A stretch of 41,472 nt of DNA from Verrucomicrobium sp. BvORR106 (GTDB taxonomy: Bacteria > Verrucomicrobiota > Verrucomicrobiia > Verrucomicrobiales > Verrucomicrobiaceae). The notes below the pieces were generated by a model. It did not search any database and was not told the DNA's origin. It saw nothing but the letters and a program-made list of their open reading frames with translations. Of this stretch, positions 6,686 to 41,472 are shown piece after piece. The DNA lies in the NCBI RefSeq assembly GCF_000739655.1, contig NZ_BATR01000036.1, positions 1 to 41,472 on the forward strand, given 5' to 3'. Position 1 is the first letter of the stretch; every line of letters starts with the position of its first letter. The position numbers and the translations under genes were made by a program.

Positions 6686-8284
6686 TCAATGCGCTCCTGC
6701 TGGTGCAGGTCCGGTGGCCTTGCGCGTCAGGAAGATCAGAGGGATCATCGCAAACAGCAGGAGGGAGGCGACGTGGAAGCTGTCGTTGTAGGCCATGATG
6801 TAGGCCTGTTTGCGAACGCCGAGGTCAAGCAGCCCCAGGGCGCGGGACTGGGCGGTGACGGCGTCGAGGCCCTGGTTCATGAAATTCTGCGCCATGGCGG
6901 TGAGCCGCTCATTGGTGAGCGGGTTGTAGGTGCTGATGGCCTCGCCCAGATGGTGGGAGTGGAAGTGCTCCCGGTTCGTCAGCAGGGCGGAGAGCAGGGC
7001 TATGCCGATGGACCCGCCCAGGTTGCGCAGCATGTTGAACAGGCCGGAGGCGCTGGCGGCCTGCTCGGACTCAATGCCGCCTGTGGTGATGAGGGAGAGC
7101 GGGACGATGGTGCAGGTGAGCCCGATGGCGCGGATGATTTGCGGCAGGACGAGCTGGTCATGGCCGGTGTCGGCGCTCATGCCGCTCATGAGGAGGGCGC
7201 TGAGGCCGAACATGCCGAGCCCGAAGGCCACCACCACGCGCTTGTCCACCCACTGCATGATCTTTGGGATGAAGGGCATGACCACGAGCTGGGGCAGGCC
7301 CACCCACATGAGCGTGCGGCCGATCTCCAGCGCGTTATACCCTTGAATCTGGGCCAGATAGAGCGGGAGCAGGTACATCATGCCGTACAGGCAGAGACCC
7401 ACGACAAGGTTCACAATGCAGCCGAGGAGGAAGTTGCGGCGGGAGAAGAGACTGAGGTTGACGGCCGGAGTGCGCTTCCGCTTCACAAGAGAAAGGATGA
7501 CAAACACCGGGAGGGTGATGGCGGCGATGATGGCCAGGGTGGTGATGAACTCAGAACCGAACCAGTCCTCGCGGGTTCCTTCCTCCAGGAAGACGGTCAG
7601 AGAACCCAGACCCACAGCCATGAAGGCCATGCCCCACCAGTCGCCTTTCTTTAGCAGCGACAATTTCGCGGGCGTGGAGTTCAGGCCGTAGCCGATGGCG
7701 CTGATGAGGATGATGCCCGGTACCAGGTTGAGGTAGAAGATCCAGGGCCAGGAGTAGTTCTCTGTGATCCAGCCGCCGATGCTGGGTCCGATGGCCGGGG
7801 CGAACATGGCGGAGAGGCCGAAGAGCGCGAAGCCCACCGGCTGCTTCTCCGCAGGCAGCATGATCATCACCATGGTGGAGGCCATGGGAATGAGGGCCCC
7901 GCCGGTGAAGCCCTGAAAAGCGCGGAAGGCGATCATGCTCTCCAGGTTCCAGGCAAAACCGCAGCACATGGAAAAGACGAGGAAGAGCACGCTGTTCCAC
8001 ATGAGGTAGCGGCGCAAACCGAAGACCTGGGCCAGCCAGCCGCAGAGGGGAATGACGATGATCTCCGGCACCAGGTAGGCGATGGAGATCCAGGAGCCCT
8101 CATCCAGCGTGGCTCCGATGCCGCCCGTGATGTTTTGCAGGGAGGAGTTGGAGATCTGGATGTCGAGCACCGCCATGAACGCGCCGAGCAGGGCGCCCAG
8201 CACGGCGATCCAGTTGCGCAGTGACGTTCCGGGGTTCGTGGAGTCACGTGCGCCTGTCTGGGGCAGGGTGGCGGTCGCGTTCAT
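6686..8284 (-). CDS. DHA2-family multidrug efflux MFS transporter (EmrB/QacA type)
   Basis: A 532-residue, strongly hydrophobic protein with about 14 predicted membrane helices, matching the DHA2 drug:proton antiporters. Helix 1 carries a motif-D1-like LGAFMAVLDIQISNSSLQNI. GWLAQVFGLRRYL fits motif A in the loop between helices 2 and 3. The AFRAFQGFTGGALIPMAS and GPSIGGWITENYSWPWIF segments fit motifs B and C of EmrB-like proteins. It would export lipophilic compounds together with the membrane fusion protein encoded just upstream. In diderms such pairs usually need a TolC-type outer membrane partner, and none is encoded in this window. The gap of 76 bp to the upstream gene is consistent with one operon under the divergent LysR regulator. 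Confidence 0.92.
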   Translation of the reverse strand: MNATATLPQTGARDSTNPGTSLRNWIAVLGALLGAFMAVLDIQISNSSLQNITGGIGATLDEGSWISIAYLVPEIIVIPLCGWLAQVFGLRRYLMWNSVLFLVFSMCCGFAWNLESMIAFRAFQGFTGGALIPMASTMVMIMLPAEKQPVGFALFGLSAMFAPAIGPSIGGWITENYSWPWIFYLNLVPGIILISAIGYGLNSTPAKLSLLKKGDWWGMAFMAVGLGSLTVFLEEGTREDWFGSEFITTLAIIAAITLPVFVILSLVKRKRTPAVNLSLFSRRNFLLGCIVNLVVGLCLYGMMYLLPLYLAQIQGYNALEIGRTLMWVGLPQLVVMPFIPKIMQWVDKRVVVAFGLGMFGLSALLMSGMSADTGHDQLVLPQIIRAIGLTCTIVPLSLITTGGIESEQAASASGLFNMLRNLGGSIGIALLSALLTNREHFHSHHLGEAISTYNPLTNERLTAMAQNFMNQGLDAVTAQSRALGLLDLGVRKQAYIMAYNDSFHVASLLLFAMIPLIFLTRKATGPAPAGAH

Positions 8285-34420: not shown

Positions 34421-34460
34421 GAGCTCAGGTCTTACGTCTTGTGTCTCCCGCGCAGCGGGC
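34421..34460 (-). repeat. Repeat family A copy overlapping the 3' end of rtcR
   Basis: On the minus strand it reads GCGGGAGACACAAGACGTAA then GACCTGAGCTC, preceded by a CCCGC/GCGGG mini-hairpin. It spans the rtcR stop codon (34425-34427) and encodes its last residues. Confidence 0.7.
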
Positions 34461-36062
34461 CCAACTCAACTCAAACCGCGCCAGATACTTCTTCAAGCGA
34501 TCGGCGTCATTGGACTTTGCCTTCGATTTCCGCGACACCGTGAAGAGCTTCCGCCCCGCATCCGACAACGAAACGGAGTCCCGGCATACCTGCACCACAT
34601 GCTCCAGTTGCACGAGGTCAAAGGGGTCGATCTCCGCGCAGGCCTCTTCACCCAACAGGGAAGGCAGGAGTTTGCAAGGCACAGTCGTCTCCCCCTCCTC
34701 CCCAGGGCGCAGCCAGGCGTCCTTCAGACGACCGATCTCAGCCTCCACACACTCCTCGGTGATGCGACCTCGCGGTGCCAGGGTGGCCAGGCGGGTCACC
34801 GCCGCGTTGAGATCGCGGAAGTTCGCACTCCATCTGGCCTCGGCGCTCAGGGCGAACTTGAGAAACCGGTCGCGCGCCTCCTTGTTGAATCGCACTTGCT
34901 TGCGCTGGCCGCGGGACAGGCGCTCCAGCTCGTAGTCGAGGTTGGGCCCGATGTCCTCCCGCCGCTCTGCCAGCCCCGGCAGGGCAAAGGTCCAGAGGTT
35001 GATGCGGGCCAGGAGGTCCTCACGGAAAGTTCCTCGAACCACCTCTGCCCGCAGGTCGCGGTTCGTGCCCGCGATGAGCTGGAAGTCGCTGCGCACCGGC
35101 TTGTCCGAGCCCAGCGGGAGGAAGGTCTTGTCCTCCACCGCACGCAGCAGCATGGCCTGCTCATCCGCGCCCAGTTCCCCGATTTCATCCAGAAAAATGA
35201 GCCCCTTGTCCGCCTCCTTGAGCAGGCCGGGACGGTCCGTTTGAGCTCCGGTAAAGGACCCCTTGCGATGGCCAAAGAGAGCGGACATGGCCTGATCCCC
35301 GCGCAGGGTGGCGCAGTTGACTTCCACGAACCTTCCCGCCAGCCCGGAGCGCTGCTGCCGCAGTTCATAGATGCGGCTGGCCAGCAGGGACTTGCCCGCC
35401 CCGGTCGGACCGGTGAGCAACATCGGGTGCGAGGAATTGACCGCCACCTGCTCGATCTGTCCGATGAGCCGGTTGAACGCCGGGTTGCGTGTGGCGATGC
35501 CGCTCTTAAGGAAATCCAACGTCTGCTCCTGCTCCTGGGCGAAGCGCGTGGCAATGCGGTCGTACTTGGAGAGGTCCAGATCGATGATCGAGTACTCGCC
35601 CGCCGGAGTGTCCCCGCGGTTCGTCCCCCTCGGAGGCGAGCTCTGCAGAATGCGCGCCGGCAGATACCGGGCCTCATTGAGCAGGTACCAGCAGATCTGC
35701 GCCACGTGCGTGCCCGTGGTGAGATGAATGAGGTAGTCCTCCGCCTCGGCATCAAAAGGATAGGCCCGCACCCAGTCATAGAGCGCCTCATATACCTCCT
35801 GAAAGTCCCAGGGATCCCGCACGGGCATCGGCACCAGGTTCACCTGCGTCTCCGGGGAGCAAGTTCTCATGTCCGCCATCACCTCCCTGGCCAGCGGCTC
35901 ATGTCGGGGATCGAAGATCAGCTCGAACCGGCTCACCAGCAGATCCTCATGCTGGCACAGACCGACCGTCGGACGCCACCTCGACCAGCGCTCCGGACCC
36001 CGAGCGCGGTCCAGTTGGACGCCAATAAAGCCAATGACAACGGTTGGGCGATGAGCAGACAC
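34425..36062 (-). CDS. rtcR: RtcR, sigma54-dependent activator of the RNA repair operon
   Basis: 545 residues from the GTG at 36062 (VSAHRPTVVIGFIGVQLD), which aligns with the start of E. coli RtcR; the frame stays open upstream but shows no family similarity. The N-terminal CARF-like sensor (about 1-180) has RWSRWRPTVGLCQ, DPWDFQEVYEAL and DYLIHLTTGTHVAQICWYLL. The AAA+ domain has Walker A GPTGAGKS, the sigma54-contact loop GSFTGA (GAFTGA in the E. coli protein), Walker B LIFLDEIGELG and the arginine-finger region. The C-terminal helix-turn-helix ends NDADRLKKYLARFELSW. The last eight residues (AGDTRRKT) are encoded by an invading repeat. It is divergent from the SPFH-Ro60-rtcBA operon, which it should activate. 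Confidence 0.95.
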   Translation of the reverse strand: MSAHRPTVVIGFIGVQLDRARGPERWSRWRPTVGLCQHEDLLVSRFELIFDPRHEPLAREVMADMRTCSPETQVNLVPMPVRDPWDFQEVYEALYDWVRAYPFDAEAEDYLIHLTTGTHVAQICWYLLNEARYLPARILQSSPPRGTNRGDTPAGEYSIIDLDLSKYDRIATRFAQEQEQTLDFLKSGIATRNPAFNRLIGQIEQVAVNSSHPMLLTGPTGAGKSLLASRIYELRQQRSGLAGRFVEVNCATLRGDQAMSALFGHRKGSFTGAQTDRPGLLKEADKGLIFLDEIGELGADEQAMLLRAVEDKTFLPLGSDKPVRSDFQLIAGTNRDLRAEVVRGTFREDLLARINLWTFALPGLAERREDIGPNLDYELERLSRGQRKQVRFNKEARDRFLKFALSAEARWSANFRDLNAAVTRLATLAPRGRITEECVEAEIGRLKDAWLRPGEEGETTVPCKLLPSLLGEEACAEIDPFDLVQLEHVVQVCRDSVSLSDAGRKLFTVSRKSKAKSNDADRLKKYLARFELSWARCAGDTRRKT

Positions 36063-36207: not shown

Positions 36208-36223
36208 TGGCACGCTCCTGGCA
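36208..36223 (+). promoter_or_regulatory. Sigma54 (-24/-12) promoter of the Ro60/rtc operon
   Basis: TGGCACG-CTCC-TGGCA matches the consensus TGGCACG-N4-TTGCA with one difference and the correct GG to GC spacing. It faces the SPFH gene; transcription would begin near 36233. A second TTGGCACG lies 9 bases upstream (36198). The sigma54-dependent RtcR encoded divergently supports the call. Confidence 0.75.
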
Positions 36224-36520: not shown

Positions 36521-37252
36521 ATGGCTCTCATCGAAACCCTCCACCTCGCAGCCGGATTTTCTTTCTCGATTCCAGACTCTCGTGCGGCCCTGCTGTTCCA
36601 GCATGGAGCGTTTGTCCGCCCGCTTGCCCCTGGACGCTACCGTCTCTGGCAGGGCGGCCACCAGGTGGTGCAGTATGACCTCCGCATCCAGCAGGTCATC
36701 ACGCAGGGTCAGGACGTTCTTACCTCGGACCAGGTCGCGCTCAAGATCAGCACGGTGCTGCTCTACCGCGTGGCGGATGCCCTGGTGAGCTACCGCGCCG
36801 TCGCGGACCCCGCCGCCACCCTCTATGTGGAAGTGCAACTCGCGCTCCGCGAGCTCGTGGGATCCACCACCTCGGAAGATTTCCTCAAATCCAAGTCGTC
36901 TCACGGCGCGGCCTTGCTGGAAGCCCTCCGCCCTCGTGCCGCAGCCCTCGGGTTGGAAATCGAGCGGGTGGAGATCCGGGACGTGATGCTGCCTCCAGAG
37001 CTCAAGAAGGCCTTCATGGCCGCACTGCAACAGCGCCAGGAGGCAAACGCCTCACTGGAAAAGGCCCGGGCCGAAACCGCCGCCATCCGTACGCTGGCCA
37101 ACGCCGCGAAACTCATGCGCGACCACCCGGAACTCCTCCAGCTCCGCTACCTCCAGACCCTCGGCGAGATCGGTGCCGGCAAGGCCACCACCCTCGTGCT
37201 GGGACTCACTGAAAGCGACAAACTGGCCTCCAAGGTCCAGTCCGGAATTTGA
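36521..37252 (+). CDS. SPFH/band-7 (slipin-like) protein of the RNA repair operon
   Basis: 243 residues from the ATG at 36521. The band-7 core spans about 15-185: AALLFQHGAFVRPLAPGRYRLW, YDLRIQQVITQGQDVLTSDQ, VALKISTVLLYRVADAL and LEIERVEIRDVMLPPELKKA, the last a slipin hallmark. A short charged coiled coil follows (QQRQEANASLEKARAETAA). Unlike typical slipins it has no convincing N-terminal membrane helix, so it may be a soluble or peripheral scaffold. It is the first gene after the sigma54 promoter and only 23 bp before the Ro60 gene, so it is surely co-expressed. Its role in RNA repair is not established; SPFH proteins usually form large ring or cage assemblies. Confidence 0.85.
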   Translation: MALIETLHLAAGFSFSIPDSRAALLFQHGAFVRPLAPGRYRLWQGGHQVVQYDLRIQQVITQGQDVLTSDQVALKISTVLLYRVADALVSYRAVADPAATLYVEVQLALRELVGSTTSEDFLKSKSSHGAALLEALRPRAAALGLEIERVEIRDVMLPPELKKAFMAALQQRQEANASLEKARAETAAIRTLANAAKLMRDHPELLQLRYLQTLGEIGAGKATTLVLGLTESDKLASKVQSGI

Positions 37253-37275: not shown

Positions 37276-38844
37276 ATGGCCAACAAGCAAATCTTCCCAT
37301 CCCAAGCCGGAGCCCTCCTCCCCCGTACCACGGCGGTGAACGAGGCCGGTGGCGTGGCCTACCAGCTCGAAGACCGGGCTGCCCTGGCCCAGCTCGCCGC
37401 CACGGGATGCCTCAACGCGACCTACTACGCCTCGGCCGAAACTCAGCTCGATACCGTGCTGCAGCTCGCGACCAAGACGCCGACGGACTTCCTGGCCCGC
37501 ACCGCGCTCTACTGTCGCAAGAAGGGCCTCATGAAGGATACGCCCGCGCTGCTCTGCGCCGTGCTGGCCTCCCGCGATGTGGACCGCCTTGAACTCATCT
37601 TTGATCGCGTGATCGACAACGCCAAGATGCTCCGCAACTTCGTCCAGATCCTGCGCTCCGGCGTGACGGGTCGCAAGTCCCTCGGGACACTGCCGAAGCG
37701 CCTCGTGCGCCGCTGGCTCGAGTCCCGTCGGGATGAAGACCTCTTCCGTGCGGACGTGGGCCAGTCTCCATCCCTGGCAGACATCATCAAGATGGTGCAC
37801 CCCCGCCCGGCCACCACCGCGCGCGCCGCCCTCTATGGTTATCTCCTCGAGCGTGAGCACCCGGCAGATCTCCTCCCGGCTATCGTACGTGAGTTCGAAG
37901 CCTGGAAGAAGGACCGCCAGGGCCCCGTGCCGGATGTGCCTTTCCAGATGCTGACCGCCCTGCCGCTCACGTCGGACCAATGGAAGTCCATTGCCCGCCG
38001 GGCCCCGTGGCAGATGACCCGCATGAACTTGAACACCTTTGCCTGGCATGGTGTGTTTGAGGACAAGCAGATCGTCTCCCTTGTGGCTGACCGGTTGCGC
38101 GATGAAACCCAGGTGCAGCGAGCCCGGGCCTTCCCGTACCAGTTGTTGATGGCCTACACCAGCGCTGGGCAGGAAGTGCCGGAGGAAATCCGTGACGCCC
38201 TCCAGGACGCCATGGAACACGCCACGGCCAATGTGCCCCAGGTGAACGGCAAGGTGGTCATCTGCCCGGACGTGTCCGGCTCCATGCGCTCTGCCGTGAC
38301 GGGCTACCGCAAGGGTGCGACCTCAGCCGTGACGTGCCTGCACGTTGCCGCCCTGGTCTCCGCCTGCCTCCTGCGTCAGAACCGCAACTCTGTGGTGCTG
38401 CCGTTCTCCGACAACGTGGTGCCAGCGACCCTGAACCCGCGTGACTCCGTGATGACCAATGCTGAAAAGCTCATGGCCCTGCCCTCGGGCGGAACCAACT
38501 GCAGCGCGCCCATGGCGGAACTCAACCGCCAGAAGGCGCAAGCAGACCTGGTCATCTATGTTTCGGACAATGAATCCTGGAGAGATACCCTTCCCCCTGG
38601 TCGCTACGGCGCAAGCCCCACGCGCACCATGCAGGAATGGGCCCTCTTCAAGCAGCGCAATCCGCAAGCACGGCTCGTGTGCCTGGACATCCAGCCCTAC
38701 ACCACCACGCAAGCGAAGGAACAGAAGGACATCCTCAACATCGGCGGGTTCTCGGACTCGGTCTTTGAGGTGATCGCCGCCTTCGCCCGGGGTGAACTGG
38801 GGCCGGAACACTGGGTCGGCGAGATCAACCAGGTGCCGCTCTAA
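37276..38844 (+). CDS. rsr: Ro60 homologue (TROVE domain RNA-binding protein)
   Basis: 522 residues, close to Deinococcus Rsr and human Ro60 (530-538). The TROVE domain of HEAT-like helices fills about 15-320 (YQLEDRAALAQLAATGCLNA, then LARTALYCRKKGLMKD, and GRKSLGTLPKRLVRRWLE). The C-terminal von Willebrand A domain has a full MIDAS-type set: DVSGSM near residue 332, a Thr in PSGGTNCSAPM, and the acidic VIYVSDNESW. In known systems the ring binds misfolded or damaged RNA ends in its hole and Y RNA on its outer face, and can hand RNA to exonucleases. The Y-RNA-like array starts 27 bp after its stop codon, and rtcB and rtcA follow. Confidence 0.95.
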   Translation: MANKQIFPSQAGALLPRTTAVNEAGGVAYQLEDRAALAQLAATGCLNATYYASAETQLDTVLQLATKTPTDFLARTALYCRKKGLMKDTPALLCAVLASRDVDRLELIFDRVIDNAKMLRNFVQILRSGVTGRKSLGTLPKRLVRRWLESRRDEDLFRADVGQSPSLADIIKMVHPRPATTARAALYGYLLEREHPADLLPAIVREFEAWKKDRQGPVPDVPFQMLTALPLTSDQWKSIARRAPWQMTRMNLNTFAWHGVFEDKQIVSLVADRLRDETQVQRARAFPYQLLMAYTSAGQEVPEEIRDALQDAMEHATANVPQVNGKVVICPDVSGSMRSAVTGYRKGATSAVTCLHVAALVSACLLRQNRNSVVLPFSDNVVPATLNPRDSVMTNAEKLMALPSGGTNCSAPMAELNRQKAQADLVIYVSDNESWRDTLPPGRYGASPTRTMQEWALFKQRNPQARLVCLDIQPYTTTQAKEQKDILNIGGFSDSVFEVIAAFARGELGPEHWVGEINQVPL

Positions 38845-38870
38845 CCAGCGCACTCTCACAACAACCCTTT

Positions 38871-38943
38871 GGAGGCTGGTGAATGCCTTTGAGACTACAT
38901 TGCAAACTGTTCTGTCTCATTAACCCCTTTGTCACCAGCCTCC
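38871..38943 (+). ncRNA. Y RNA 1, short form without tRNA module
   Basis: A perfect 12-bp closing stem (38871-38882 GGAGGCTGGTGA with 38932-38943) is followed by an internal loop holding the shared motif GAATGCC (38881-38887). A second helix pairs TGAGAC (38890-38895) with GTCTCA (38914-38919), capped by the ACTACAT loop region. At 73 nt, it has no T-arm or D-arm. The 3' side has CCCCTTTG before the closing stem, as in the other copies. The motif and position next to Ro60 identify it as a Ro-binding Y RNA stem. Confidence 0.8.
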
Positions 38944-38974
38944 AATCCCCCCCTTTCTTGATCTTCACCTAAAC

Positions 38975-39105
38975 GACGATGAATGCCCGAGGAACTACAT
39001 CTTACCCTGCAGGCCGCGGGTTCGACTCCCGCCCTCTGTAGCAATACAGACGGTAGCTCAGCGGTAGAGCAGCAGGCTCGTGTTCCTCAATCCCTAGTCA
39101 TCGTC
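38975..39105 (+). ncRNA. yrlA: Y RNA 2, YrlA-like with permuted tRNA module
   Basis: Closing stem GACGATGA (38975-38982) with TCATCGTC (39098-39105); shared motif at 38981-39000; second helix GAGGAAC (38989-38995) with GTTCCTC (39082-39088). The inner module 39006-39076 is closed by CCTGC/GCAGG. It contains, in order, a T-arm (GCGGG-TTCGACT-CCCGC, 39016-39032), an acceptor-like stem capped by a 4-nt loop (TCTGTA-gcaa-TACAGA, 39035-39050) and a D-arm (GCTC-AGCGGTA-GAGC, 39056-39070). This is tRNA with the anticodon arm replaced by the Y stem, as described for bacterial YrlA RNAs. It is not a true tRNA. Confidence 0.88.
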
Positions 39106-39126
39106 ACCTCTTTCAATCCCCCAAAC

Positions 39127-39183
39127 GCTGACGAATGCCATCGAAACTACATACGGAGTGTTTCGCAAACTCTAGTCGTCAGC
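39127..39183 (+). ncRNA. Y RNA 3, short form without tRNA module
   Basis: Closing stem GCTGACGA (39127-39134) with TCGTCAGC (39176-39183), perfect; shared motif GAATGCC...ACTACAT at 39133-39152; second helix CGAAAC (39142-39147) with GTTTCG (39160-39165); 3' side ACTCTAG before the closing stem. It is only 57 nt and, like Y RNA 1, it lacks the tRNA-like insert. It lies between two module-bearing copies. Confidence 0.8.
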
Positions 39184-39215
39184 ACCTTCTCTGACTCAAA
39201 CATCCCTTTCTCCAA

Positions 39216-39349
39216 TGACGGCGAATGCCCGAAGGAGCTCCTTTTCCCCAAGCACAGACATGGGTTCGATTCCCATCTGCGGGATGAACACCCCGCAGTA
39301 GCTTAATGGTAGAGCAGTGAAAAGCTTCTTCACCCCCTTGTCGCCGTCA
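39216..39349 (+). ncRNA. yrlA: Y RNA 4, YrlA-like with permuted tRNA module
   Basis: Closing stem TGACGGCGA (39216-39224) with TCGCCGTCA (39341-39349), perfect 9 bp; GAATGCC at 39223-39229, though the ACTACAT half is diverged here. Second helix 39231-39239 with 39323-39331 (one G-T wobble). Module: CAC/GTG closure (39253-39255, 39317-39319); T-arm ATGGG-TTCGATT-CCCAT (39260-39276); a 7-bp acceptor-like stem CTGCGGG/CCCGCAG (39277-39283, 39292-39298) capped by an 8-nt loop; D-arm GCTTAATGGTAGAGC (39301-39315). The acceptor length equals that of true tRNA. Confidence 0.87.
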
Positions 39350-39389
39350 CCTCTTTTAAAAACGTCAATGCCACATCGTGGCTCGCATT

Positions 39390-39522
39390 GCGCGGGCGGA
39401 TGCCGGGGAAACTACATCCTACTTGGTTACGGGTTCGACTCCCGTCTCGTGCTGGTTCAGCACGGGTAGCTCAATGGCAGAGCAGGAAAAAAATACGTTT
39501 CACCATTCCTTGCCGCCCGCGC
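39390..39522 (+). ncRNA. yrlA: Y RNA 5, YrlA-like with permuted tRNA module
   Basis: Perfect 10-bp closing stem GCGCGGGCGG (39390-39399) with CCGCCCGCGC (39513-39522); motif GGATGCC...GAAACTACAT at 39398-39417; second helix GAAAC (39408-39412) with GTTTC (39497-39501). Module: CCT/AGG closure (39418-39420, 39484-39486); T-arm ACGGG-TTCGACT-CCCGT (39429-39445); 7-bp acceptor-like stem CGTGCTG/CAGCACG (39448-39454, 39458-39464) with a 3-nt cap; D-arm GCTC-AATGGCA-GAGC (39469-39483). It ends 37 bp before rtcB. Confidence 0.88.
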
Positions 39523-39559: not shown

Positions 39560-41065
39560 ATGTCCGATACCTCAGTCATCTCCCCTTTCCACGTCACCGG
39601 CGAAGCCGAAGCCATTCTCCCTGCCCGGGACAGCAAAGGCAAGCCGATCACCGTGATCGGAACGGAGGCCATCCGCAACGGCTTCGACGCCACCTGCTTG
39701 GCGCAGGCCCTCAACTCCCGCTCCGCGCCTGGGGTCACAGATCTCGTGCTCAACCCCGATGCGCATGCAGGCTACGGGGCTCCGGTGGGTTGCGTCATGG
39801 TCTCGCCGACGCACATCTATCCAGGCCCGGTGGGTGTGGATATCAAGTGCTCGATGAGCCTGCTCCAGCTGAACATTCCGGACGATGTCATCGCGGACAA
39901 GGCGGTGCGCCGTGCCCTCATCAATGCCATCGTGGAACGCACTCCGACCGGGGCCGGTCGCGGTCAGCGCACGGCCAAGAAATCCCGTCGTGTGAATGGG
40001 GATCTCGGTGAAAAGGTGGTGACTCAGGGAGCCTCCAAGGAAGTGTGCGAAGCGCTCGGGATCCCGCCGGAATGGGCGGCCCGCTGCGAAGATAGCGCGC
40101 ACGTCGGTCATGACGGAAACGTCTCGACGCTCATCGAGCGCCTCGAAAAGATGCGTCGTTTCAACGGGTATCCGAACTTCGACAAGAAGGTGGAGCAGCT
40201 CGGCTCCTACGGTGGAGGAAACCACTTCGGGGAATGCGAACGCGTGGAGCTTGCGGACGGATCGCCTGAGGCGCGCCGTGCAGCCGAGGCCTTTGGTCTG
40301 AAGGACGGTCATGTGGCCTTCCTCTCCCACTGCGGATCCCGCGGGTTTGGTCATGACCTGGCCTCGCGCCAGTTCAAGTCCCTGGAAGCCTTCTTCCGCC
40401 AGTGGTCGCTGCCGTTCCCGGCGGAGGACCGGCAGCTCGTGTATGCGCCGCTCGGTTCGCCGGAGGCCAACGCTTATCTTGATGACATGTCCCTGGGGGC
40501 GAACTTCGCCACCGTGAACCACCTGCTCATCAACTCACTCGTGCTGGAGGCTTTCCAGGAAGTGCTTCCTGGAACCCAGGGGGAGCTCGTGTACTTCATC
40601 AGCCACAACATCGCCCGCGAAGAGCTGGTGGACGGACGCAACACCTGGGTGCACCGCAAGGGGGCCACCCGCGCCTTCCCTGCCCTGCATCCTGGGTTGC
40701 AGGAAACACCCTTCTACAACATCGGCCACCCGATCCTCCTGCCTGGCAACCCGCGGGACGGCTCCGTCGTCATGGTGGCCAAGCCCGGTGCCGTGAAGTC
40801 CTGCTACAGTGTGAACCACGGTGCCGGACGCTGCATGGGGCGCAAGCAGGCGGGGCGTGTCCTGGACCAGAAGCTGGTGGACGCCGACTTCGTGACCCAC
40901 GACATCCTCACCAACTGCCGCACCTACCCGATCGACGAAGCCCCGAACGCGTACAAGGATTTCAACGAAGTCCTCCGCTCCGTGGAAACCGCCGGTCTGG
41001 CCGAGACGGTCTGCAAACTCAAAGCCCGCTTCGTGATTAAAGACGCAAGCGAAGCGGATGACTAA
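39560..41065 (+). CDS. rtcB: RtcB, GTP-dependent 3'-phosphate RNA ligase
   Basis: 501 residues. RtcB joins RNA 2',3'-cyclic phosphate or 3'-phosphate ends to 5'-OH ends through a guanylylated histidine with Mn2+. Visible motifs: NPDAHAGYGAPVGCVM (about 65-80), metal ligands Asp94 and Cys97 in GPVGVDIKCSM, GGGNHFGE with a metal His, HCGSRGFGHD, the FISHNIAREE segment and the nucleophile motif VNHGAGRCMGR in the last quarter. It is longer than the E. coli protein (408) and near archaeal size. It stands directly after the Y-RNA-like array and before rtcA, under the same sigma54 promoter unless the array is processed separately. Confidence 0.95.
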   Translation: MSDTSVISPFHVTGEAEAILPARDSKGKPITVIGTEAIRNGFDATCLAQALNSRSAPGVTDLVLNPDAHAGYGAPVGCVMVSPTHIYPGPVGVDIKCSMSLLQLNIPDDVIADKAVRRALINAIVERTPTGAGRGQRTAKKSRRVNGDLGEKVVTQGASKEVCEALGIPPEWAARCEDSAHVGHDGNVSTLIERLEKMRRFNGYPNFDKKVEQLGSYGGGNHFGECERVELADGSPEARRAAEAFGLKDGHVAFLSHCGSRGFGHDLASRQFKSLEAFFRQWSLPFPAEDRQLVYAPLGSPEANAYLDDMSLGANFATVNHLLINSLVLEAFQEVLPGTQGELVYFISHNIAREELVDGRNTWVHRKGATRAFPALHPGLQETPFYNIGHPILLPGNPRDGSVVMVAKPGAVKSCYSVNHGAGRCMGRKQAGRVLDQKLVDADFVTHDILTNCRTYPIDEAPNAYKDFNEVLRSVETAGLAETVCKLKARFVIKDASEADD

Positions 41066-41137: not shown

Positions 41138-41472
41138 ATGCTCCTCCTCTCCGGCCTTGAAGGCGGTGGCCAGTTGCTACGCACCTCCCTCTCGCTCTCC
41201 CTGATCACCGGCAAAGCGTTTCACATGACCCGCATCCGCGGAGCCCGGCCCAAGCCGGGGCTCATGCGGCAGCACTTGACGTGTGTGAATGCAGCGGCGG
41301 AGATCTGTGGGGCCGTGGTGGAGGGTGCGCACTTGGGTTCCCAGGAGCTGAAGTTTCAGCCCGGCCCGGTGCGTGCTGGCGACTACCAGTTTGCCATCGG
41401 CAGCGGCGGGGCCACCACCTTGGTGCTACAGACGTTGCTGCCCGCCCTGCTCCATGCTCCCGGTCCCAGCAC
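41138..41472 (+). CDS. rtcA: RtcA, RNA 3'-terminal phosphate cyclase, 3'-truncated by the window
   Basis: The frame is open from the ATG at 41138 to the window end, giving 111 residues of an expected 340. The conserved start [20 protein letters not shown] matches the EGGGQ-RT opening of RtcA. The next segments, [34 protein letters not shown] and [21 protein letters not shown], follow the family in order. The catalytic His lies in the missing part. RtcA converts RNA 3'-phosphates to 2',3'-cyclic phosphates using ATP, making substrates suitable for RtcB. It completes the rtcBA pair of the operon. Confidence 0.93.

What the first reader, a model, noticed from the sequence alone, without database searches (positions are those of the whole stretch)
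39006..39486. Three circularly permuted tRNA modules (T-arm, capped acceptor, D-arm)
At 39006-39076, 39253-39319 and 39418-39486 a canonical T-arm (TTCGANT loop) is followed by an acceptor-like stem closed by a 3-8 nt loop and then a D-arm with a GG in its loop. This is a tRNA opened at the anticodon arm and closed at the acceptor end, and the Ro-binding stem takes the place of the anticodon arm. It matches the published tRNA mimicry of YrlA RNAs. Two copies have a 7-bp acceptor stem, like true tRNA, so they could be substrates for tRNA-modifying enzymes or decoys.
Basis: partly seen in the sequence, partly recalled or inferred. Interest (0 to 1): 0.82.

Follow-up and report, generated by a model that had tools for sequence, protein, structure and literature searches.

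The report
tRNA-like Y RNAs in repair operon
The three odd RNA shapes are bacterial Y RNAs of the known YrlA type, which copy the body of a tRNA; comparison with many relatives suggests that one branch of this family specifically copies the features that mark alanine tRNA, though the copies in this window do not.

Summary
T-arm, capped acceptor and D-arm lie in that order at 39016-39070, 39260-39315 and 39429-39483. They are the tRNA-like domains of three YrlA Y RNAs (RF02553, E 5e-14 to 7e-10, all below the curated cut-off). Two shorter Y RNAs share the array, between rsr (Ro60) and rtcBA with rtcR diverging: an RNA-repair operon. YrlA as a circularly permuted tRNA and as a DusA/TruB substrate is in print, so the window is a new member of a known kind. 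The comparison gave more. (1) Tertiary pair 15-48 covaries in 182 modules: 139 G-C, 32 A-U, 11 other. (2) In 7-bp acceptors with A73, pair 3-70 is G.U in 26 of 63, other pairs 0-4; a held-out set, predicted beforehand, gave 12 of 21, other pairs 0-2. G3.U70 with A73, G1-C72 and G2-C71 is alanine-tRNA identity. (3) CCA in the cap is enriched exactly at 74-76. A YrlA subclass therefore looks like an anticodon-less tRNA-Ala mimic. The window's own modules lack G3.U70.

The parts
34452..36050 (-). RtcR, sigma-54 activator of the RNA-repair operon (extent of the homology)
   Evidence: NF038308 809 bits, residues 127-659 of the ORF; PF06956 and PF00158
36208..36223 (+). sigma-54-like promoter element TGGCACGCTCCTGGCA upstream of the operon
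   Evidence: only match of the pattern used on either strand of the window; consensus recalled, function inferred
36521..37252 (+). SPFH / Band 7 protein upstream of rsr on the same strand (start codon inferred)
   Evidence: PF01145 E 8.3e-30
37276..38844 (+). Rsr, Ro60 orthologue, the expected Y RNA-binding ring
   Evidence: PF25045 vWA_Ro60 4.6e-21, TROVE 1.4e-5; phmmer to solved Rsr 2nvo, E 1.5e-23 over residues 20-508
38869..38945 (+). Y RNA unit 1, short, no tRNA module
   Evidence: outer helix and GAATGCC / CTTTGTC motifs; fold z -6.3, 0 of 200 shuffles as good
38976..39107 (+). Y RNA unit 2, YrlA type
   Evidence: RF02553 57.8 bits, whole model
39016..39070 (+). tRNA-like module 1: T-arm 39016-39032, acceptor 39033-39053, D-arm 39056-39070
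   Evidence: Levitt pair G15-C48
39127..39183 (+). Y RNA unit 3, short; in the same-genus genome G003 the same slot holds a tRNA-like module
   Evidence: fold z -2.6, 3 of 200 shuffles as good; comparison of intergenic regions
39218..39350 (+). Y RNA unit 4, YrlA type
   Evidence: RF02553 48.9 bits
39260..39315 (+). tRNA-like module 2: T-arm 39260-39276, 7-bp acceptor 39277-39298, D-arm 39301-39315
   Evidence: A73 present, pair 3-70 is C-G, A15/C48 not a Levitt pair
39393..39522 (+). Y RNA unit 5, YrlA type
   Evidence: RF02553 63.4 bits
39429..39483 (+). tRNA-like module 3: T-arm 39429-39445, 7-bp acceptor 39446-39466, D-arm 39469-39483
   Evidence: pair 3-70 is A-U, position 73 is U; Levitt pair A15-U48
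39560..41065 (+). RtcB RNA ligase
   Evidence: PF01139 3.5e-99
41138..41472 (+). RtcA RNA 3'-phosphate cyclase, cut by the window (and contig) end
   Evidence: PF01137 3.8e-40

Best explanation
The three modules are the effector domains of three YrlA-type Y RNAs in a five-member Y RNA array between rsr and rtcB of an RtcR-associated RNA-repair operon of a verrucomicrobial genome. Shown here: the anatomy, the gene order, the family membership by sequence and structure, and family-wide covariation of the tRNA-type tertiary pair 15-48. Inferred: tRNA damage activates RtcR, sigma-54 transcription makes Rsr, Y RNAs, RtcB and RtcA together; the outer Y stem (GAATGCC...CTTGTC) binds the Rsr ring; the tRNA-shaped domain is displayed to a tRNA-reading partner. 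The partner may differ between units: short units are plain Rsr ligands, while tRNA-like units bind modification enzymes, PNPase or, for the G3.U70/A73 subclass seen in relatives, alanyl-tRNA synthetase. In this window the units are of the generic, non-alanine kind.
For: RF02553 whole-model matches to all three; order rtcR / SPFH / rsr / Y array / rtcB / rtcA; rsr, Y array and rtcB in that order in 16 of 16 relatives compared, rtcR found in 15 of the 16; Rsr matches solved Rsr 2nvo; Levitt pair 139 G-C, 32 A-U, 11 other in 182 unique modules, Fisher p 2e-27 for G/A against C/U, and 22, 15 and 1 in 38 held-out modules. The Salmonella rsr-yrlBA-rtcBA operon is regulated by damaged tRNAs (PMC7790460, passages).
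Against: All three matches are below Rfam's gathering score, and at gathering threshold the window has none. Module 2 lacks the 15-48 pair; module 1 has an irregular acceptor stem; single-sequence folds form the D-arm only in unit 5. No expression, binding or modification data exist here for this organism. Rsr matches the TROVE domain only weakly (24.9 bits, cut-off 23), and the equivalog NF041674 only over its C-terminal half and far below cut-off.
Confidence: 0.85

Rival explanations
1. A subclass of YrlA RNAs (not the window's copies) are alanine-tRNA mimics: elbow plus an acceptor with G1-C72, G2-C71, G3.U70 and A73, which is what alanyl-tRNA synthetase reads (that it needs no anticodon is recalled; the identity table in PMC9976931 lists no anticodon base for bacterial Ala). 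They bind AlaRS as decoy or tether; where a CCA is encoded in the cap, the cap may be opened to give a chargeable two-piece RNA.
For: 26 of 63 A73 7-bp stems have G3.U70, other pairs 0-4; 11 of 35 distinct stems, other pairs 0-3; Fisher for G3.U70 with A73 (26 of 63 against 3 of 68) p 3e-7. Prediction written, then 12 of 21 held-out, other pairs 0-2; 4 of the 7 distinct held-out stems were new. All 26 also have G1-C72 and G2-C71; 11 of 12 held-out for each. In the window's genome G3.U70 occurs in exactly the 3 tRNA-Ala among 53 distinct tRNAs read. Present in 23 of 89 Rsr rows from 4 phyla, at least 15 changes on the tree, 8 forced by starred branches. CCA at 74-76 in 19 of 119 caps, shuffle mean 3.2, maximum 11 of 5000. 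Identity set from PMC9976931 (passages).
Against: The window's own modules lack it. 66 of 89 Rsr rows lack it. The label is clustered on the tree (1 of 500 shuffles as low), so part is inheritance. G20, a bacterial Ala determinant, is absent (0 of 26). No free 3' end. Only 4 of the 26 and 3 of the 12 held-out have CCA in the cap. Leaving out pair 3-70 and base 73, the stems are not nearest to tRNA-Ala (2.0 of 26). In non-A73 stems pair 4-69 is also wobble-rich (15 of 68). The held-out loci come from the same phyla and were not required to adjoin rsr.
Confidence: 0.5
2. The G3.U70 wobble is an inherited trace: the module arose from a tandem tRNA-Ala pair (T-arm of the first, acceptor strands, D-arm of the second) and has no present function.
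For: The Rfam model hits a tRNA-Ile/tRNA-Ala junction in the window's genome (22.9 bits) and tandem tRNA-Lys genes, which have the same T-acceptor-D order. In Acidobacteriota YrlAs adjoin tRNA arrays. The trait is clustered on the Rsr tree.
Against: Other stem pairs differ through compensatory swaps (4-69: G-C, C-G, A-U within G3.U70 stems) while 3-70 stays G.U. The rest of the stem is not tRNA-Ala-like.
Confidence: 0.3
3. The structures are decayed or genuine tRNA genes.
For: T- and D-arms are canonical.
Against: No anticodon arm; ARAGORN finds none; the permuted order recurs across phyla with a Y motif in front.
Confidence: 0.02

Closest known systems
YrlA Y RNA (Rfam RF02553; Chen 2014 and Wang 2018, cited through reviews; PDB 6CU1)
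   Same: Y stem with Ro-binding motif; T-arm, capped acceptor, D-arm; next to rsr and rtcBA
   Different: Three YrlA copies plus two short Y RNAs in one array; two with a 7-bp acceptor; scores under the curated cut-off
Salmonella rsr-yrlBA-rtcBA operon (PMC7790460, passages)
   Same: RtcR, Rsr, Y RNAs, RtcB, RtcA
   Different: An SPFH gene lies upstream of rsr; five Y RNAs instead of yrlB and yrlA
tRNA-Ala and (recalled) tmRNA, alanine identity
   Same: In the subclass only: G1-C72, G2-C71, G3.U70, A73, elbow
   Different: Permuted, closed cap instead of a 3' end, no anticodon, no G20; not present in the window's modules
Permuted tmRNA and permuted tRNA genes (recalled; RF04321 exists in Rfam)
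   Same: T-arm and 3' acceptor strand precede the 5' strand; some caps hold CCA in register

Membership tests
YrlA (RF02553) | Covariance-model match over the whole model | tested here: met
   Three matches, model 1-114, E 4.8e-14 to 7.1e-10
YrlA (RF02553) | Score at or above the curated gathering score | tested here: not met
   63.4, 57.8, 48.9 against 69; only 7 of 77 genomes of the relatives search reach it. A curation threshold, not a biological feature, so I still file it here on structure, motif and neighbourhood.
YrlA (RF02553) | Encoded beside a Ro60/Rsr gene | tested here: met
   Rsr 37276-38844
YrlA (RF02553) | tRNA-type tertiary contacts | tested here: inconclusive
   15-48 covaries in the family; in the window 2 of 3 modules have a standard pair
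YrlA (RF02553) | Binding to Rsr; modified by DusA and TruB | not testable with these tools
   needs biochemistry
RNA-repair operon | rtcR diverging, rsr, rtcB, rtcA in order | tested here: met
   rtcA is cut by the contig end
tRNA gene | Anticodon arm and ARAGORN call | tested here: not met
   none in the window
Alanine-identity subclass of YrlA (defined here) | 7-bp acceptor with G3.U70 and A73 (G1-C72 and G2-C71 as a rule) | tested here: not met
   Window: module 2 C3-G70 with A73, module 3 A3-U70 with U73, module 1 irregular; met in 26 of 182 family modules and 12 of 38 held-out
AlaRS substrate | Free 3' CCA and aminoacylation | not testable with these tools
   cap is closed in the sequence; CCA in register in 19 of 119 caps

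The most novel reading that the evidence does not exclude
Bacterial Y RNAs do not only mimic tRNA in general: a recurrent subclass mimics alanine tRNA, presenting elbow, G3.U70 and A73 without an anticodon, so alanyl-tRNA synthetase (or another reader of G3.U70) is a partner of the Ro60/RNA-repair system; where CCA is encoded in the cap, nuclease opening of the cap would give a chargeable two-piece, tmRNA-like molecule.
Probability: 0.45. Interest if true: 0.82.

Novelty: new member of a known kind. Interest (0 to 1): 0.55.

Why it matters
For the window itself: one more Ro60/Y RNA repair operon, with a five-unit array. [quoted passage not shown] A position-specific alanine-identity signal, reproduced in a held-out set, names a concrete further candidate (AlaRS) that can be tested in vitro. 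The one YrlA that I could read in contigs labelled as Salmonella and Escherichia phage (L321, L322) lacks the signal, so work on such a YrlA might not show it (inference).

Tried and rejected
Real tRNA or tRNA pseudogene: rejected (permuted order). Rfam at gathering threshold: 0 matches in the window. A second YrlA locus in the window's genome: the two weak extra hits (E 0.066 and 1.4) were not kept; the first spans a tRNA-Ile/tRNA-Ala junction, the second overlaps a tRNA listed (C123:52056-52129). Descent of the alanine-type stem from tRNA-Ala: not supported once 3-70 and 73 are left out. Alanine-type units preferring the last place of the array: 16 last against 7 first among 30 raw units, p 0.07, not claimed. 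Enterobacterales sample: 24 of 295 genomes 'hit', but all 28 loci fetched from genomes other than the centre G440 (L293-L320) hold tandem tRNA genes at the match. The divergent tRNA array of the window's own genome (C117): no RNA-repair family among 9 nearby ORFs scanned, 4 of which matched no Pfam family. Literature: Chen 2014, Wang 2018 and Sim 2018 are not held, so I cannot exclude that they mention pair 3-70; searches in the held library with YrlA or Y RNA plus alanine or alanyl-tRNA synthetase gave nothing on this (further searches). What I say of those three papers beyond the cited passages is recall. Structure prediction was not run: the match to 2nvo over residues 20-508 made it dispensable. 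The pairing percentages of T- and D-stems are conditional on my parser and are not used as evidence. A smaller first count (78 modules) and a looser one (185) were superseded by the strict set.

Full report
Observation. A parser that asks for a T-arm, a capped stem and a D-arm finds those three and nothing else on either strand of the 41,472-base window; 60 Markov copies gave 0.17 per window on average, at most 2. Rfam's YrlA model matches all three over its full length, below the curated cut-off. Two more Y RNAs without the module share the outer stem and motifs. In single-sequence folds the D-arm forms only in the third unit.

Context. Upstream and divergent is rtcR (NF038308, 809 bits), then one sigma-54-like element (36208-36223), an SPFH gene, rsr, the five-unit array, rtcB and rtcA. 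Rsr matches the solved Rsr 2nvo over residues 20-508. The window is contig C174 of a genome of 8.69 Mb. Of 77 genomes searched (the window's own included) 23 have an Rsr match at E 1e-10; 17 of these, the window's included, are close orthologues at 58% identity or more. The 16 others all carry Y modules between rsr and rtcB; rtcR was found near 15 of the 16. The nearest named loci are Verrucomicrobiota.

Is it tRNA-like in three dimensions? I collected modules downstream of rsr in 105 loci: 213 raw, 182 unique. Left out before counting: 30 that overlap an ARAGORN tRNA, 13 without Y motif, 12 not downstream of rsr, 7 with under 4 acceptor pairs; 7 of 143 loci had no Rsr hit. The Levitt pair 15-48 is G-C in 139, A-U in 32, A-C in 7, other in 4. 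A further 38 modules, not used before, gave 22, 15 and 1 other. In the window modules 1 and 3 keep the pair (as G-C and A-U), module 2 does not.

Acceptor classes. 131 of 182 have at least 6 of 7 pairs in the tRNA register. In the 63 of these with A at position 73, G.U wobbles per pair are 4, 2, 26, 1, 0, 2, 4 from pair 1-72 to 7-66; in the 68 others 7, 5, 3, 15, 3, 7, 5. Counting each distinct stem once, 11 of 35 A73 stems have G3.U70 and no other pair has more than 3. All 26 also have G1-C72 and G2-C71, 16 have G4-C69, none has G20. Published bacterial alanine identity is A73, G2-C71, G3.U70, G4-C69, G20 (PMC9976931, passages). In the window's own genome G3.U70 is found in the 3 tRNA-Ala and in none of the other 50 distinct tRNAs read (acceptor ends of tRNAs without encoded CCA were read by a simple rule that misplaces some).

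Held-out test. Before searching further I wrote down that pair 3-70 must exceed all other pairs in new A73 stems. Searches round a Planctomycetota, an Alphaproteobacteria and an Acidobacteriota genome (23 of 392, 4 of 385 and 8 of 337 genomes with a match, centres included; up to 30 loci fetched per search) gave 38 new modules in 27 loci; 21 already seen, 9 tRNA overlaps and 1 weak acceptor were left out, and nearness to rsr was not required. Of 21 A73 stems, 12 have G3.U70; the other pairs have 2, 0, 1, 0, 0, 0; of 13 other stems 1 has it. The 12 are 7 distinct stems, 4 of them not seen before. The new loci come from the same phyla as the first set, so this is replication, not full phylogenetic independence.

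Spread. On a tree of 89 Rsr proteins (loci with at least one parsed module) 23 carry an alanine-type unit: Verrucomicrobiota, Planctomycetota, Acidobacteriota and Pseudomonadota; 15 changes at least, 8 forced by starred branches; shuffled mean 20.6, 1 of 500 as low, so the trait is both partly inherited and repeatedly gained or lost. The three rows of the window's genus have none.

The cap. CCA stands at positions 74-76 in 19 of 119 caps of 6 nt or more; at other offsets 0 to 7; shuffles 3.2 on average, 11 at most of 5000. Held-out: 5 of 28 at 74-76, 1 elsewhere. This looks like a tRNA 3' end kept in register, and permits, without showing, opening by processing enzymes.

Against this reading. 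Alanine-type and CCA-bearing caps overlap in only 4 of 26 and 3 of 12; outside 3-70 and 73 the stems are not tRNA-Ala-like, which speaks against plain descent and, if anything, for selection on the identity elements; 66 of 89 rows lack the type; the YrlA of the contigs L321 and L322 lacks it; and pair 4-69 of non-A73 stems is also wobble-rich, unexplained.

Literature. Circular permutation (PMC11472068), DusA and TruB (PMC8394870) and regulation by damaged tRNAs (PMC7790460) are in print; I read passages of each. The papers that define YrlA are not held, so the absence of the alanine point in print is not established.

Verdict. The window is a well-formed member of a published family. The family-level signal is what deserves follow-up.

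Noticed in passing
L215, L216, L218, L219, L222, L224, L232, L240, L248, L276, upstream of rsr: 10 of 80 named Rsr loci carry 5 to 25 ARAGORN tRNA calls, nearly all on the same strand before the Y RNA/rsr block (9 Acidobacteriota, 1 Polyangia; a few calls, such as tRNA-SeC in L215, overlap YrlA and are false); in L240 a tRNA-Asn gene ends a few bases before the first Y RNA. Loci L346, L360, L362 and L366 also show tRNA clusters beside YrlA.
   Followed up: partly
L266:5996-6292, L268:5434-5508, L273:5866-6140, L274:5967-6039: Cloverleaf tRNA genes (Pro-UGG, Arg-ACG) stand between or after YrlA units downstream of rsr in Phycisphaerae and one unclassified genome; in L266 I saw the order YrlA, tRNA-Pro, YrlA, tRNA-Arg, rtcB-like start: spare tRNAs inside the repair operon.
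   Followed up: partly
L065-L068, L070, L072, L073, L205, L206, L232, L243, L271 and others: Y RNAs with only T-arm plus capped hairpin and no D-arm, a 'minihelix' half of tRNA: 29 candidates in 28 of 97 regions searched, several genomes counted twice, some with D-arm remnants; one also by eye in contigs L321 and L322.
   Followed up: partly
L078:6556-6774 and 6928-7151 (G054): Two YrlA units carry an 87-nt insert, 6 differences between the copies, inside the T-loop after A58; its last 50 nt recur at 80-86% in three other places of that genome, parts of a longer dispersed repeat.
   Followed up: partly
window 39127-39183 against L063 and L064: The third array slot is a short Y RNA here and in G001 (L064) but holds a tRNA-like module with a degenerate D-arm in G003 (L063): gain or loss of a whole module within one genus.
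   Followed up: partly
G000:C117:97762-100454 (L326): The window's genome has an array of tRNA genes (12 Rfam matches; 9 by ARAGORN) on another contig, several with low scores.
   Followed up: partly
L079-L089, L091, L093: A second, divergent Rsr (about 22-32% identity) occurs in relatives, in some beside YrlA hits; G024, G035 and G037 carry both Rsr types.
   Followed up: no
L064, L066, L068, L075, between Y array and rtcB: A long extra, possibly coding stretch lies between Y units and rtcB in some relatives (intergenic length 1.2-2.3 kb).
   Followed up: no
non-A73 7-bp YrlA stems, family-wide: Pair 4-69 is G.U in 15 of 68 non-A73 stems; no explanation.
   Followed up: no
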